Virus record (IMG/VR): IMGVR_UViG_3300034160_000018
Coordinates: 1-20,324 of that record
Length of the DNA stretch: 20,324 nucleotides
Strand: one strand, 5' to 3'
From: a virus
The translations under genes were made by a program, and so were the position numbers. Under the pieces are notes generated by a model. The model was not told the origin of the DNA. It ran no database searches and saw only the letters and a list, made by a program, of their open reading frames with translations. Shown one piece after another: positions 1 to 9,237 of the stretch. The first letter of the stretch is position 1; each line of letters opens with the position of its first letter.

Positions 1-326
1 TACCGGTGCCGCGCAGGTCCAGAGAGCCGCCAACGTTTAACCCGTCCGGCAGCGCCGTGATACCGGTGCCTTCCAGGTCCAGAGAGCCGCCAACGTTTAA
101 CCCGTCCGGCAGCGCCGTGATACCGGGCCTTCCAGGTCCAGAGAGCCGCCAACGTTTAACCCGTCCGGCAGCGCCGTGATACCGGTGCCGCGCAGGTCCA
201 GAGGGCCGCCAACGTTTAACCCGTCCGGCAGCACGGTAATCCCGGTGCCTTCCAGGTCCAGAGAGCCGCCAACGCTCAGCCCGTCCGGCAGCACGGTAAT
301 CCCGGTGCCTTCCAGGTCCAGAGAGC
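1..326 (-). repeat. 60-bp tandem repeats (five copies plus a partial) inside the LRR-like gene
   Basis: Copies start at 1, 61, 121, 180, 240 and 300; the last is partial and the array runs off the left edge. All are 60 bases except the third (121-179), which is 59. Two alternating variants occur, reading LDLRG or LDLEG on the minus strand. The copies are almost identical, which suggests recent duplication or homogenisation. There are no unique spacers, so this is not a CRISPR array. Confidence 0.9.
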
Positions 327-405
327 CCGGAACAGTAATTTTGTTATCTTGGCTGATCGTGTGTTCAATGCCTTGTTCTTTCAAAATGCTCAACAAATTA
401 GTCAT
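97..405 (-). CDS. Leucine-rich-repeat-like tandem repeat protein, frameshifted
   Basis: The protein opens with about 27 unique residues (MTNLLSILKEQGIEHTISQD...) and then runs into near-identical 20-residue units of the pattern LDLEGTGITVLPDGLNVGGS, a regular leucine spacing expected to build a short solenoid. Repeat proteins of this style are familiar from enterobacterial prophages but I know of no proven function. The start is supported by AAGG five bases upstream. One T is missing near position 127 compared with the other copies (59 instead of 60 bases), so the frame shifts and ends at 97 with a non-repeat tail (GPVSRRCRTG). If the base is restored, the repeats stay open to the left edge of the window, so the intact protein would be longer. 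It is the last gene seen in the leftward operon and is separated from its upstream neighbour by a terminator, so expression may depend on readthrough or antitermination. Confidence 0.6.
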   Translation of the reverse strand: MTNLLSILKEQGIEHTISQDNKITVPGSLDLEGTGITVLPDGLSVGGSLDLEGTGITVLPDGLNVGGPLDLRGTGITALPDGLNVGGSLDLEGPVSRRCRTG

Positions 406-533: not shown

Positions 534-833
534 TTATTTATGGCGAGAACGACGCTTCTGCTCCTTCGTCAGCAGCTTTAATAAAGCGGACGTGTTTCGC
601 TTCGCAGACTTGCGGTCGCTTCCCGATGTAAGCGCTACTAACTCTCTTAGCGCCGCACCGTCACCGCGTGAAAGGAACTCAACCTTTATGCCGCCGACCG
701 TATTTGCAAACTCGGTGTTGATTTCGCGAATTGTCATATTGCGGCCTGTATTTTTTATCCGGTTCTCTTTAACAAGAACCGCAGTCATCAGTTCTGCCAA
801 CTGCTTATCATTGAGTTGCTGCTCGTGATTCAT
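534..833 (-). CDS. Small phage protein of unknown function
   Basis: This 99-residue protein is rich in charged residues, with a very basic C-terminus (KEQKRRSRHK). No domain is recognised. It probably forms a helical, nucleic-acid-compatible small protein, but that is inference from composition only. The start is supported by GAGG about six bases upstream. Its first 26 bases overlap the end of the preceding gene, so the two are likely translated as a coupled pair in the leftward early operon. A terminator follows at 425-451. It is probably one of the accessory early proteins that lambdoid phages carry left of the immunity region. Confidence 0.7.
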   Translation of the reverse strand: MNHEQQLNDKQLAELMTAVLVKENRIKNTGRNMTIREINTEFANTVGGIKVEFLSRGDGAALRELVALTSGSDRKSAKRNTSALLKLLTKEQKRRSRHK

Positions 834-1131
834 GTTCGCCTCGGTGCGTTGTTAAAAAATGAAGGCTGGCAGCGATGAACGAGATTACTTGGCGCAGTTC
901 CGCCTCATTTTTTATCGTCGCTGGCAGTTCCTCCTTGATTTGCTGAGGTAAATAAATATTGCCGTTCCAACTCAGAACATCGCCAAAGCGGTAACTACAC
1001 AGCCATTCGCAATCGTTATCCGCTTCCCAAATGCACAGTAGAGTGGCTTCGCTGCTTGCTTTGGTTTCTACGGTCAGATCGAGTCCGCGACGTAGCGCCA
1101 TTTTGAAAGTGGTTTTTGAGATATCAAACAT
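808..1131 (-). CDS. Small phage protein of unknown function
   Basis: This 107-residue protein has no recognised domain. It has a mixed alpha/beta look, with several Trp and Cys residues in the middle (LLCIWEADNDCEWLCSYRFGD), and no signal peptide or membrane segment. AGAGGG lies about nine bases before the ATG. It is the first full-length gene after the 560-bp leader with the boxA element, and its end overlaps the 534-833 gene by 26 bases. Position suggests an early leftward-transcribed accessory function; the sequence does not say which. Confidence 0.7.
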   Translation of the reverse strand: MFDISKTTFKMALRRGLDLTVETKASSEATLLCIWEADNDCEWLCSYRFGDVLSWNGNIYLPQQIKEELPATIKNEAELRQVISFIAASLHFLTTHRGEHESRAATQ

Positions 1132-1664: not shown

Positions 1665-1694
1665 ACAAAAAAACCCGGCGCGGTGGCCGGGTTT
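1665..1694 (-). terminator. Strong terminator ending the repressor operon
   Basis: AAACCCGGC (1671-1679) and GCCGGGTTT (1686-1694) form a perfect 9-bp stem with a 6-base loop. On the minus strand a run of seven T follows. The stem touches the stop codon of the 1694-1939 gene. A shorter U-rich tail on the plus strand could make it weakly bidirectional. Confidence 0.85.
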
Positions 1695-1939
1695 TATTTA
1701 GTGACTAATGACAGGAGTATTGGCACTAGTATTGATGAAATTATAAGTGCAATTACCCACTTATGATTTTCTTCAGCTTTATCTACTAAACGTCGTTCTA
1801 CGTTTCTTAGTTCACCTGTAGTATTTTTGTCAAATTGCTGGATATCTGCGCGTATTCCGCGAATATCTTCATGAATATCAATAATTAGTTGTTTTTGCGA
1901 CTCGATGATTGTTTCAACTCTTGTCACTCGGCTATTCAT
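1694..1939 (-). CDS. Small coiled-coil protein with C-terminal membrane anchor (XhlA-like layout)
   Basis: I place the start at the ATG at 1939 because GGAGG lies exactly seven bases upstream; this gives 81 residues starting MNSRVTRVETIIESQ. A longer frame starts at 2017 with a weaker site and adds 26 residues, including a GSGNGGGDD stretch that largely reflects the Shine-Dalgarno sequence. Residues 1-58 look like an amphipathic coiled coil; residues 60-80 (HKWVIALIISSILVPILLSL) form one membrane segment with a single Lys after it, so the coil probably faces the cytoplasm. The layout recalls XhlA-type phage proteins and anti-holin or exclusion factors. It is the last gene of the cI transcript and ends in a strong terminator, so it should be made in the lysogen. 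Confidence 0.75.
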   Translation of the reverse strand: MNSRVTRVETIIESQKQLIIDIHEDIRGIRADIQQFDKNTTGELRNVERRLVDKAEENHKWVIALIISSILVPILLSLVTK

Positions 1940-2027
1940 ATCATCGCCTCCGCCATTCCCGGAACCATGTCGCGTTGAGTTGGGGAATGGAATTACCTTA
2001 AATTCTTCCTGAATCATAGACCACTCT

Positions 2028-2399
2028 TCATTTTATGTCACCATGTTCAATCCAGGCGATGATAGGCATAGCTGAGAACCACTGCGTATAACCGCAGTTG
2101 CCGCAATGCATTGGATAGTAAAAGTCACCTAAGTTATTGGTTTCACTCATTACTCCATATATCCCAGTTATTTTTCTTGATTCAACATAAGTATATGATT
2201 TTTTTGATATTTCACCATTATGGTAATGACCTCCAATTGTTGCCATCACTCCAATTTTATCATGGTTGCAAACTGGACATATTAATGAGGAAACACCTTT
2301 TGACAACAAGTATTTATAAAATATATCTGGAGTTATTTTATAAAAAGCATCGAGTAAACTCTGATCTATATTTGTTTTTTTATTTTTATAATCATTCAT
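2028..2399 (-). CDS. Zinc-ribbon protein of unknown function in the repressor operon
   Basis: This 123-residue protein carries two CxxC pairs, C41-P-V-C44 and C99-G-N-C102, spaced as in a zinc ribbon with a 54-residue insertion between the knuckles. The insertion is rich in Gly, His and Tyr. No enzyme motif is seen. The gene is clearly more AT-rich than its surroundings, a usual sign of a recently acquired cargo gene. AGGTG lies about nine bases before the ATG. It starts 46 bases after the cI stop and ends 10 bases before the longer start of the membrane protein gene, so all three likely share the PRM transcript. The position equals rexA of lambda, but there is no visible sequence likeness to RexA. 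Confidence 0.75.
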   Translation of the reverse strand: MNDYKNKKTNIDQSLLDAFYKITPDIFYKYLLSKGVSSLICPVCNHDKIGVMATIGGHYHNGEISKKSYTYVESRKITGIYGVMSETNNLGDFYYPMHCGNCGYTQWFSAMPIIAWIEHGDIK

Positions 2400-2445
2400 A
2401 AAAATTCACACCTATATTTTTATGGATAGAAACATTAGCTAAGAG

Positions 2446-3141
2446 CTAAACCAACCTCATCTTAGTCTCTACACCCACGCCAATGATCCGGCAATTACCG
2501 TTGATTGGTATGAGTGGCCACGCCGGGTTGAGTCCCTTTAGGTATTTTAAGCCACCATCCATGATCAGCCTTTTAAACGTCGCTTCGTTTGAGTCGGACA
2601 ACTTTGCGATCACCAAACTTCCATTAACCGGTTCCCGGCCAGTATCAAACAGGACAAAAGTACCGTCTGGAATACTCATCCCTGCTGGTGCCGTCATTGA
2701 GTCACCCTCAACCAACAACCAGAACGCCTCGCCTTGAATATGCGCGTCAGACTCCAGCCATAGATCGATATCTGCCAACGTGTATGTTTCGACAGCCTCA
2801 GCCCACGCGCCAGCCTGGACGCTGCTGAGTACTGGATATTTCTTTCCGGCCTTGTATGCCCCTGCATAGGTGATGTTATCGCCGTGAATACTAATGACAG
2901 ATTCAGAAGATTTACCGTGTTGCAGCCAAACCACATCGACACGAAGGAAGTTAGCCAAGGCATTCATTTTATCCTGTCGAGGTAGTGACTCGGCATTTAG
3001 CCACTTACTAACGCCTTTCGAAGATAACCCCAAGGCTCTAGCTATAGCCATTCCGCGACCATGTTCATCTAACCCAGCATCTCTACAGGCCTGCGCAAGC
3101 CGCTGGGAAAATTCTTGACGCACTTTTTCATTTTGTACCAT
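2446..3141 (-). CDS. cI: CI-type prophage repressor with S24 autoprotease domain
   Basis: The 231-residue protein keeps lytic promoters off in the lysogen and is expected to self-cleave when RecA is activated. Residues 8-70 form a helix-turn-helix domain (ARALGLSSKGVSKWLNAESLPR). The C-terminal half is a LexA/UmuD-like peptidase S24: cleavage site A110-G111 (SVQAGAW), nucleophile S148 in VEGDSM, and general base K190 in ATFKRL. Length and order fit lambda-family repressors. No Shine-Dalgarno precedes the ATG, and a TACTAT -10 element ends about seven bases before it, so the mRNA from PRM is probably leaderless, as for lambda cI. It is divergent from cro. Confidence 0.93.
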   Translation of the reverse strand: MVQNEKVRQEFSQRLAQACRDAGLDEHGRGMAIARALGLSSKGVSKWLNAESLPRQDKMNALANFLRVDVVWLQHGKSSESVISIHGDNITYAGAYKAGKKYPVLSSVQAGAWAEAVETYTLADIDLWLESDAHIQGEAFWLLVEGDSMTAPAGMSIPDGTFVLFDTGREPVNGSLVIAKLSDSNEATFKRLIMDGGLKYLKGLNPAWPLIPINGNCRIIGVGVETKMRLV

Positions 3142-8356: not shown

Positions 8357-8380
8357 CTGTCACATGAACAGAATTAAAAG

Positions 8381-8404
8381 AACCCGCCGCCGTGCGGGTT
8401 TTTT
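8381..8404 (+). terminator. Q-dependent leader terminator tR'
   Basis: AACCCGC (8381-8387) and GCGGGTT (8394-8400) form a 7-bp stem with a 6-base loop, followed by six T in total. It would end a leader transcript of roughly 65 bases from pR' unless Q is bound, giving late-gene control. Confidence 0.85.
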
Positions 8405-8483
8405 CATATCCAGCCAAGGCTGCGCTAACGCGTGGCCTTTTTTATTGACAACAGCACACCCCGACAGCCGGGAGGTGGAGATC

Positions 8484-8756
8484 ATGAAGATGGACGACAA
8501 GTACAGTAACGCCACATATGGCAGTGCTGGTCTTACCGCCTTCTTTGCTAGCCTATCGCTGCAGGACTGGGGATTTATCATCGGCGTGGCCTTCAGTATC
8601 GCGCTAGGTGTCTTAACCTACCTGCTGAACAGGCGAGAGCAAATAAAGCGCACCAGAATACTGCAGGACATTCTCACCAAGACCAGCGCACAGAACCCCT
8701 CTGCCACAGCTCAAGTTATTGCCGAATTAGGCTCAAAAGCTCCGAACGAGATCTGA
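8484..8756 (+). CDS. Class II pinholin (S21-like) with dual start
   Basis: The 90-residue protein begins MKMDDKYSNATYGSAGLTAFFAS, much like S21 (MKSMDKIS...). Segment one (about 11-27) is small-residue-rich and weakly hydrophobic, as in a SAR-type TM1 that leaves the membrane; segment two (IIGVAFSIALGVLTYLL, about 31-47) is a firm helix, followed by a basic cytoplasmic tail. In S21 the extra N-terminal Met-Lys form is an antiholin. Here Met1 and Met3 flank Lys2, and each has its own ribosome site: GGAGG eight bases before Met1 and GGAG nine before Met3. Pinholins depolarise the membrane and thereby release the SAR endolysin encoded next. An in-frame upstream ATG at 8364 lies within the tR' leader and is not used. 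Confidence 0.88.
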   Translation: MKMDDKYSNATYGSAGLTAFFASLSLQDWGFIIGVAFSIALGVLTYLLNRREQIKRTRILQDILTKTSAQNPSATAQVIAELGSKAPNEI

Positions 8757-8757
8757 T

Positions 8758-9237
8758 ATGACCCCCAGTCTGAGGAACAAGATTATCGCCGCCACCAGTG
8801 GCGGTGCGCTGGCGATCGCCGCTGTGCTTATCCCTGAACTCGAGGGCGTCCGTTATGAGCCTTATTACGATGTGGCCGGTGTGCTGACTGTTTGTTATGG
8901 GCATACGGGCACAGACATCGTTATCGGCAAAAAGTACACGCCAGCGGAATGCAAGGCGATGCTGGAGAAAGACCTGGTGCCGTTCTCGCGGTCAGTACAG
9001 CGCTCTGTAAAAGTTCCAGCTACCGAACACCAGAAGGCTGCGCTGATCAGCTTCAGCTACAACGTAGGCGTGTACGCGTTCGAGCGCTCGTCGCTGCTGC
9101 GTAGACTCAATGCTGGTGATTACGTGGGCGCGTGCGCGGGCCTGCGGCAGTGGATTTATGCTGGTGGCAAACAGTGGAAAGGACTGATGAATCGCAGGGA
9201 AGTAGAGCATGAGGTCTGCACGTGGAGCCAAAAATGA
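8758..9237 (+). CDS. SAR endolysin (R21-like lysozyme, glycoside hydrolase 24)
   Basis: The 159-residue muramidase cuts peptidoglycan glycan strands. Catalytic triad spacing E29-D38-T44 (ELEGVRYEPYYDVAGVLT) equals E11-D20-T26 of T4 lysozyme. Residues 8-25 (KIIAATSGGALAIAAVLI) form a weak, Gly/Ala/Ser-rich signal-arrest-release segment in place of a cleavable signal, so the enzyme is exported by Sec, held in the membrane and freed on depolarisation. It starts two bases after the holin stop and overlaps Rz by four bases. Confidence 0.93.
   Translation: MTPSLRNKIIAATSGGALAIAAVLIPELEGVRYEPYYDVAGVLTVCYGHTGTDIVIGKKYTPAECKAMLEKDLVPFSRSVQRSVKVPATEHQKAALISFSYNVGVYAFERSSLLRRLNAGDYVGACAGLRQWIYAGGKQWKGLMNRREVEHEVCTWSQK

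What the first reader, a model, noticed from the sequence alone, without database searches (positions are those of the whole stretch)
1694..2445. Two unknown genes in the rexAB position of the repressor operon
A zinc-ribbon protein (C41/C44, C99/C102) and a coiled-coil protein with one C-terminal membrane helix follow cI on the same strand and end in a strong terminator, so they should be expressed in the lysogen. The zinc-ribbon gene is much more AT-rich than its neighbours. A soluble sensor plus a membrane effector in this place is the plan of RexA/RexB; neither protein looks like Rex. This is my best candidate for an undescribed exclusion or anti-phage system.
Basis: partly seen in the sequence, partly recalled or inferred. 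Interest (0 to 1): 0.7.

Follow-up and report, generated by a model that had tools for sequence, protein, structure and literature searches.

The report
Prophage zinc-ribbon plus membrane coiled-coil pair
Behind its repressor gene this phage carries a small zinc-binding protein and a membrane protein that many enterobacterial prophages keep as a pair, probably as a shield against other phages, and the membrane gene appears to make two proteins from one reading frame.

Summary
Behind cI on the minus strand lie a 123-aa zinc-ribbon gene (ZnR, 2028-2399) and a 107-aa coiled-coil gene with one C-terminal membrane helix (CC-TM, 1694-2017), ended by a terminator. Both are AT-rich (32% and 38% GC; window 52%). 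They match only function-unknown PHROGs (4293, 6324) and no PADLOC, Pfam or NCBIfam family above cut-off.

The pairing is strongly conserved: CC-TM follows ZnR in 69 of 70 loci. The module sits behind several different repressors, between repressor and integrase, in baseplate operons, or between tail chaperone and tape measure (the slot of the HK97 exclusion gene gp15). Tail-slot copies carry their own conserved promoter-like leader.

(1) CC-TM looks like a gene within a gene: its glycine linker encodes a Shine-Dalgarno sequence before a conserved internal start codon (0 of 1000 codon-randomised sets match it, in each of two locus sets). (2) CC-TM also occurs behind an unrelated ~140-aa soluble family, and its N-terminal peptide differs with the partner.

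Best reading: a lysogen-expressed exclusion module with an exchangeable soluble sensor and a membrane anchor/effector. Defence is inferred, not shown. It is not RexAB, gp15 or XhlA by descent.

The parts
2446..3141 (-). cI-type repressor (HTH + S24 peptidase), first gene of the presumed lysogenic operon
   Evidence: Pfam Peptidase_S24 E 5e-23, HTH_3 E 1.4e-5; phrog_4 transcriptional repressor E 2e-49
2028..2399 (-). ZnR: 123-aa soluble zinc-ribbon protein (C41/C44, C99/C102), phrog_4293
   Evidence: AlphaFold2 mean pLDDT 79.6, zinc-ribbon-like weak matches to NrdR, Rpb9 and TFIIS
1694..2017 (-). CC-TM long form: 107 aa, N-terminal FP peptide, Gly-rich linker, coiled coil, C-terminal membrane helix; phrog_6324
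1694..1939 (-). CC-TM short form (predicted): 81 aa, started at internal ATG (Met27)
   Evidence: strong SD (duplex energy -9.5 kcal/mol, against -2.9 for the long-form start) and conserved start codon; AlphaFold2 helix begins at residue 26
1947..1951 (-). GGAGG Shine-Dalgarno sequence inside the Gly linker, 7 nt before the internal ATG
   Evidence: sequence GGAGGCGATGATATG; codon-randomisation test
1940..2017 (-). Residues 1-26 of the long form: FP-type peptide plus flexible linker; proposed docking segment for ZnR
   Evidence: [FYL]P/YT motif in 23 of 28 ZnR-partnered and 1 of 9 beta-partnered genes, Fisher p 2.5e-4
1700..1756 (-). Predicted membrane helix (residues 88-106)
   Evidence: hydropathy 2.7 over 19 residues; helix in AlphaFold2
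1667..1695 (-). Rho-independent terminator overlapping the CC-TM stop codon

Best explanation
A prophage-expressed, membrane-tethered two-gene exclusion module. The pair is transcribed with cI in the lysogen (inferred from position). ZnR is a small cytoplasmic zinc-ribbon protein. CC-TM is anchored in the inner membrane by one C-terminal helix, with its coiled coil in the cytoplasm (topology inferred). CC-TM is probably made as two products from one frame: a long form with an N-terminal FP peptide on a flexible glycine linker, and a short form that starts at an internal ATG whose Shine-Dalgarno sequence is encoded by the linker (strong sequence evidence, not shown in protein). The forms would co-assemble through the coiled coil. 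The long form's peptide would dock ZnR, holding it at the membrane, while the short form sets the stoichiometry (inferred). When another phage injects or replicates, ZnR would recognise a phage-derived signal, and the complex would cluster or rearrange and either perturb the membrane (Rex-like abortion) or block entry of DNA (inferred). In other prophages ZnR is replaced by an unrelated ~140-aa family while the CC-TM design is kept, which fits an exchangeable sensor on a common membrane part. Rough likelihoods: conserved functional unit ~0.95; expressed in the lysogen ~0.85; dual start ~0.8; physical docking of ZnR on the peptide ~0.65; phage exclusion as the role ~0.55-0.6; membrane-effector mode rather than injection block or other ~0.5 of that.
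For: Pairing 69/70. Behind different repressors: the window cI; ENT1 cI (L004); an identical ZnR-CC-TM pair behind two other S24 repressors (L010, L013); between HTH repressor and integrase (L060-L062). In tail operons between tail chaperone and tape measure, the slot of HK97 gp15, a superinfection-exclusion protein (PMC10883804). Tail-slot copies have a conserved extended -10-like leader 23-31 nt before ZnR and nowhere else in the loci except one chance hit; the cI-slot copies lack it. The slot behind this cI type is variable cargo: related phages PhiR12_1 and SI5 carry other genes there. L050 has a PADLOC candidate defence gene, PDC-S43 (E 8e-39), between cI and the pair. Internal start: SD energy -10.2 against -7.6, sd 0.41 (24 genes), and -10.5 against -7.8, sd 0.52 (16 further genes), 0 of 1000 randomisations each; start codons are ATG, or GTG in L008, or TTG in L119 and L126, never a non-start codon. 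Partner exchange: L083, L117, L118, L120, L121, L123, L125, L126, L128. The lysis cassette lies elsewhere in the window (holin 8364-8756, lysozyme 8758-9237).
Against: No member has a tested function in the papers searched, and no PADLOC family matches either protein. One membrane helix is a poor pore; Rex-type effectors have four. Slot and lysogenic expression are also typical of morons with non-defence roles. The promoter-like leader and the internal start are sequence inference; no RNA or protein data were available. Loci are related, so the randomisation counts are not independent events.
Confidence: 0.5

Rival explanations
1. Injection-blocking superinfection exclusion without cell death, as for HK97 gp15: CC-TM sits in the inner membrane and interferes with the incoming tape measure or DNA conduit; ZnR stabilises or regulates it.
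For: Tail-slot position next to the tape measure identical to gp15; small single-helix membrane protein; gp15 and SieA act at the inner membrane against DNA injection (PMC10883804).
Against: No sequence similarity to gp15 (15 aligned columns, probability 1%). gp15 has an N-terminal helix and no partner. A cytoplasmic zinc-ribbon partner and exchangeable sensors are not needed for this mode. The module also occurs far from tape measures.
Confidence: 0.22
2. Toxin-antitoxin type pair: CC-TM is a membrane toxin, restrained by ZnR and/or by its own short form (gene within a gene, as in Rpn), with phage defence or addiction as the outcome.
For: Best Foldseek hit of ZnR is the zinc domain of the antitoxin MqsA, though weak (E 0.38); Rpn antiphage toxins are inhibited by an intragenic small protein (PMC10327210); the coiled-coil part varies in length by tandem repeats (L123, L136).
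Against: The MqsA match is not significant. The short form contains the whole membrane part, so it would be the likelier toxin. Copies lacking ZnR survive (L084-L092, L105).
Confidence: 0.1
3. Lysogenic-conversion or regulatory module unrelated to phages: ZnR is a nucleic-acid-binding regulator (zinc ribbons of NrdR, TFIIS or Lar type) held at the membrane by CC-TM.
For: Zinc-ribbon fold resembles NrdR, Rpb9 and TFIIS (Z below 3); very weak Lar (anti-restriction) hits at E 0.001-0.004 in homologues.
Against: All scores are far below cut-offs. Replacement of ZnR by an unrelated family behind the same membrane part argues against one fixed regulatory target. It sits in slots that hold variable cargo.
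Confidence: 0.15
4. Lysis accessory (XhlA-like haemolysin/holin partner).
For: PGAP names the E. coli CC-TM 'hemolysin XhlA family protein'; Pfam XhlA E 8e-6 for L002.
Against: Below the Pfam cut-off (26.4 against 34.7 bits; window protein 16.1 bits). A holin and a lysozyme lie elsewhere in the window. Position behind cI means expression when lysis genes are off.
Confidence: 0.03

Closest known systems
Lambda RexA/RexB and RexAB-type systems (P. putida RexABpp; phages Sbash, CarolAnn, Butters)
   Same: Two-gene soluble + membrane pair behind the repressor or otherwise expressed in the lysogen; proposed sensor plus membrane part
   Different: No sequence relation found. RexA-type proteins bind DNA without a zinc ribbon. 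The membrane partners have four helices, here one. No gene-within-gene or partner exchange of this kind is described in the passages read.
HK97 gp15 superinfection exclusion moron
   Same: Same slot (tail chaperone | moron | tape measure); small inner-membrane protein
   Different: 62 aa, N-terminal helix, no partner gene, no detectable similarity
XhlA haemolysin family (PF10779)
   Same: Short coiled coil followed by one C-terminal membrane helix
   Different: Below the curated cut-off; lacks the lysis-cassette position; has the N-terminal peptide, Gly linker and a soluble partner
Rpn intragenic toxin-antitoxin (RpnL/RpnS)
   Same: Internal start in one frame giving a second small product that contains the oligomerisation part; repeat-driven length variation
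   Different: Rpn is a PD-(D/E)XK nuclease; here a membrane coiled coil with a separate soluble partner. Inhibition is not tested.
PHROG families 4293 (ZnR), 6324/6136/3556 (CC-TM), 5893 (second soluble family)
   Same: Direct sequence families, all annotated function unknown
   Different: These give no function; the window proteins are diverged members (about 25% identity for ZnR)

Membership tests
RexA/RexB exclusion system | Sequence family membership of RexA and RexB | tested here: not met
   No Rex-named family among Pfam, PHROGs, NCBIfam or PADLOC matches of either protein
RexA/RexB exclusion system | Membrane protein with four transmembrane helices | tested here: not met
   One hydrophobic helix, residues 88-106
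RexA/RexB exclusion system | Co-transcribed with cI in the lysogen | tested here: inconclusive
   Same strand, 46-bp gap without terminator, terminator after the second gene; no RNA data
RexA/RexB exclusion system | Aborts growth of other phages | not testable with these tools
   Needs plaque tests
HK97 gp15 exclusion protein | Sequence similarity to gp15 | tested here: not met
   hhalign of A4 against gp15: 15 columns, probability 1%
HK97 gp15 exclusion protein | Moron between tail chaperone and tape measure | tested here: met
   Met by most homologues (gp15); not by the window copy, which lies behind cI
XhlA (PF10779) | Score above the gathering cut-off (34.7 bits) | tested here: not met
   Window 16.1 bits, best homologue 26.4 bits
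XhlA (PF10779) | Location in a lysis cassette | tested here: not met
   Holin and lysozyme at 8364-9237 on the + strand; the pair is behind cI
Lar restriction-alleviation zinc ribbon | Score above TIGR03655 / PF14354 cut-off | tested here: not met
   19.3 against 39.6 bits at best, in a homologue; window protein not listed
MqsA-type zinc antitoxin domain | Same fold | tested here: inconclusive
   Foldseek E 0.38, probability 0.35; not among the second-look rows
Gene-within-gene (intragenic second product) | Conserved internal start codon with ribosome-binding site | tested here: met
   0 of 1000 codon randomisations in two locus sets; ATG, GTG or TTG always kept
Gene-within-gene (intragenic second product) | Second protein product detected | not testable with these tools
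   Needs a tagged construct or ribosome profiling

The most novel reading that the evidence does not exclude
A new, widespread class of enterobacterial prophage exclusion system: a common membrane platform encoded as a gene within a gene, whose glycine linker doubles as the ribosome-binding site, combined with exchangeable soluble sensors (zinc ribbon or an unrelated ~140-aa family) that dock on a partner-specific N-terminal peptide.
Probability: 0.45. Interest if true: 0.8.

Novelty: new variant of a known kind. Interest (0 to 1): 0.62.

Why it matters
Exclusion genes are usually found by luck or by similarity. Here anatomy alone marks a recurrent module in phages or prophages of Escherichia, Salmonella, Klebsiella, Enterobacter, Citrobacter, Pseudocitrobacter, Yersinia, Brenneria and Pectobacterium that the defence library used (PADLOC 2023) does not contain. 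The embedded ribosome-binding site offers a simple test: does a glycine linker that is also a Shine-Dalgarno sequence set the ratio of two forms of one membrane protein? If defence is shown, the modular exchange of the soluble part would let one compare what different sensors detect on a common membrane output.

Tried and rejected
A collection scan with the single ZnR protein in genome contigs found nothing; the alignment-based scan did. The first CC-TM alignment was too divergent for a pattern scan. The genome search does not draw relatives of a virus record, so genomes reached through loci were used as centres.

XhlA/lysis role: rejected on cut-off scores and position. HK97 gp15 homology: rejected. 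PDB fold searches with the ZnR model gave no significant match. No solved-structure sequence search was run. A fold search with the CC-TM model was not run, since a single helix would match anything.

A fused architecture was suspected because phrog_3556 is 276 positions long and CC-TM matches only its C-terminal half. The loci found with it encode separate adjacent genes, so no fusion is claimed.

Literature searches for the combination zinc ribbon + prophage + superinfection + coiled-coil + transmembrane, and for XhlA + superinfection exclusion, gave nothing relevant.

A first run of the start-site test had two mis-set coordinates; the corrected run is the one relied on.

Full report
1. On the minus strand, cI (2446-3141) is followed after 46 bp by ZnR (2028-2399, 123 aa) and after 10 more bp by CC-TM (1694-2017, 107 aa). 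No terminator lies between cI and ZnR. A 9-bp stem, 6-nt loop and T run overlaps the CC-TM stop codon. Both genes are AT-rich: 32.0% and 37.7% GC, against 49.3% for cI and 51.7% for the window. ZnR has the CxxC pairs 41/44 and 99/102. CC-TM has one hydrophobic helix at its C terminus.

2. Known families. ZnR matches phrog_4293 (E 7e-17) and CC-TM matches phrog_6324 (E 3e-16), both of unknown function. Pfam, NCBIfam and PADLOC give nothing above cut-off. The AlphaFold2 model of ZnR (mean pLDDT 79.6) is a zinc ribbon with an N-terminal helical part. PDB matches are weak: MqsA zinc domain by Foldseek (E 0.38); NrdR, Rpb9 and TFIIS ribbons at Z below 3. CC-TM is modelled as a disordered stretch 1-25 and one helix 26-106.

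3. Conservation. tblastn against phage records found ZnR in Enterobacter, Salmonella and Klebsiella phages. Scans with an alignment brought 57 loci from IMG/VR and 6 from GTDB genomes. Of 70 ZnR loci (35 distinct proteins), 69 have CC-TM directly downstream; the exception, L064, has a truncated ZnR. Seven ZnR positions are invariant in 27 diverse sequences: C41, C44, C99, N101, C102, P112, W116. In whole genomes ZnR is uncommon: 12 of 395 sampled genomes of the order and 3 of 369 of the class had a match at E 1e-3, several of them short and weak.

4. Places. (a) Behind repressors: the window; Enterobacter ENT1 (L004); L065; L050; and an identical ZnR-CC-TM pair behind two further S24 repressors, L010 and L013. 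(b) Between an HTH repressor and an integrase: L060-L062. (c) In tail operons between tail chaperone and tape measure, among Rha, Ant and KilA-N genes: most of the others, including an E. coli chromosome. (d) In a baseplate operon (L008). The tail slot is where HK97 keeps gp15, a superinfection-exclusion protein (PMC10883804). In the phages whose cI-cro region is closest by DNA, PhiR12_1 and SI5, other genes follow cI, so the place is a cargo slot. In L050 a PADLOC candidate defence gene, PDC-S43, stands between cI and the pair.

5. A promoter of its own outside the cI operon. Tail-slot copies share a leader with a terminator-like hairpin, then CAGT(T/A)(C/T/A)A, 13-20 nt, and TGnTA(A/G)ATT, an extended -10-like element, 23-31 nt before ZnR. 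The pattern occurs in the loci only there, apart from one chance hit; the copies behind cI lack it. Together with (4) this says that the module is kept where it can be expressed in a lysogen. This is inference from sequence.

6. A gene within a gene. In CC-TM the residue that follows the glycine run is Met in nearly all members. Before it the glycine codons spell GGAGG or a near form at Shine-Dalgarno distance. When the glycine codons were redrawn from background usage, the anti-SD duplex energy averaged -7.6 (sd 0.41), against -10.2 observed for 24 genes; for 14 representatives below 60% identity it was -8.0 (sd 0.58) against -10.7. No randomisation out of 1000 reached the observed value, also when the linkers' own codon usage was used. 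A second set of 16 loci found through whole genomes repeated it: -10.5 against -7.8, 0 of 1000. Where the residue is not Met it is Val coded GTG (L008) or Leu coded TTG (L119, L126), that is, still a start codon. L054 and L126, with little of the glycine run left, still keep GGAG or GGGAGG. In the window the internal site (-9.5) is much stronger than that of the long form (-2.9). One GenBank record already annotates the short form as the gene (MK448231). The modelled helix starts at this residue. The loci are related, so this is strong but not independent evidence, and no protein data exist here. A possible origin is that a separate gene's ribosome-binding site was read through in frame and became the glycine linker.

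7. Exchange of the partner. CC-TM with the same design also follows an unrelated ~140-aa family (phrog_5893-like, called beta partner here): L083, L117, L118, L120, L121, L123, L125, L126, L128, mostly behind repressors. All-against-all comparison links most of these proteins to each other, except L118, which joins only by place and length. L119 has a third partner. The peptide before the linker differs with the partner: [FYL]P or YT occurs in 23 of 28 ZnR-partnered genes and 1 of 9 others (Fisher p 2.5e-4, relatedness ignored). The simplest reading is that the peptide binds the soluble partner.

8. What it does. A unit that is kept in lysogen-expressed cargo slots, in the two places where known exclusion genes sit (rex and gp15), made of a soluble part that is exchanged and a membrane part that is kept, is best read as an exclusion system with sensor and membrane anchor or effector. 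RexAB-type systems work this way, with a soluble RexA that activates a membrane RexB (PMC12894663; PMC7542560). The short form would set the composition of the membrane complex; in Rpn, an intragenic product inhibits the full-length antiphage protein (PMC10327210). Defence, sensing and the output are inferred. I place phage exclusion at about 0.55-0.6, and the membrane-event mode at about half of that.

9. What it is not. It is not RexAB by sequence or by number of membrane helices, not gp15, and not a Pfam XhlA although PGAP uses that name. It is not a lysis gene: holin and lysozyme are at 8364-9237.

10. Limits. Homologue sets are samples and related. The family libraries have dates. The literature library holds open-licence papers only. 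Structure models of the complex could not be run.

Noticed in passing
window 1-405: Gene at the contig edge (97-405, minus strand) with about 20-residue repeats (GGSLDLEGTGITVLPDGLNV), weakly LRR/DUF5649-like.
   Followed up: no
window 808-1131 and 534-833: Two small minus-strand genes beyond the terminator; the first matches phrog_6147 (unknown function, E 4e-32), the second nothing above chance.
   Followed up: no
L050 3705-4046: PADLOC candidate defence gene PDC-S43 (E 8e-39) between cI and the ZnR/CC-TM pair.
   Followed up: partly
L123, L132, L136 (CC-TM genes): The coiled coil is lengthened by tandem repeats (e.g. NKIQSVESSLS, DAMDKKFDSK), recalling the repeat-driven length variation of Rpn C-terminal domains.
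   Followed up: no
L005 3370-3948 and 3914-4201: Klebsiella phage Kp4864-1 has the short-form CC-TM without ZnR or Gly linker, overlapping a 192-aa gene with an HExxH-like motif (KHEAGH), phrog_36675.
   Followed up: partly
tail-slot loci, upstream of ZnR (e.g. L051, L055, L056): TGATCA palindromes (TGATCAAATGATCA) upstream of the extended -10-like element, possibly an operator.
   Followed up: partly
L151 1914-2939, L152 1592-2464: Genes that take the post-cI slot in phages PhiR12_1 and Salmonella SI5 (341 and 290 aa, no PADLOC match); candidates for other exclusion genes.
   Followed up: no
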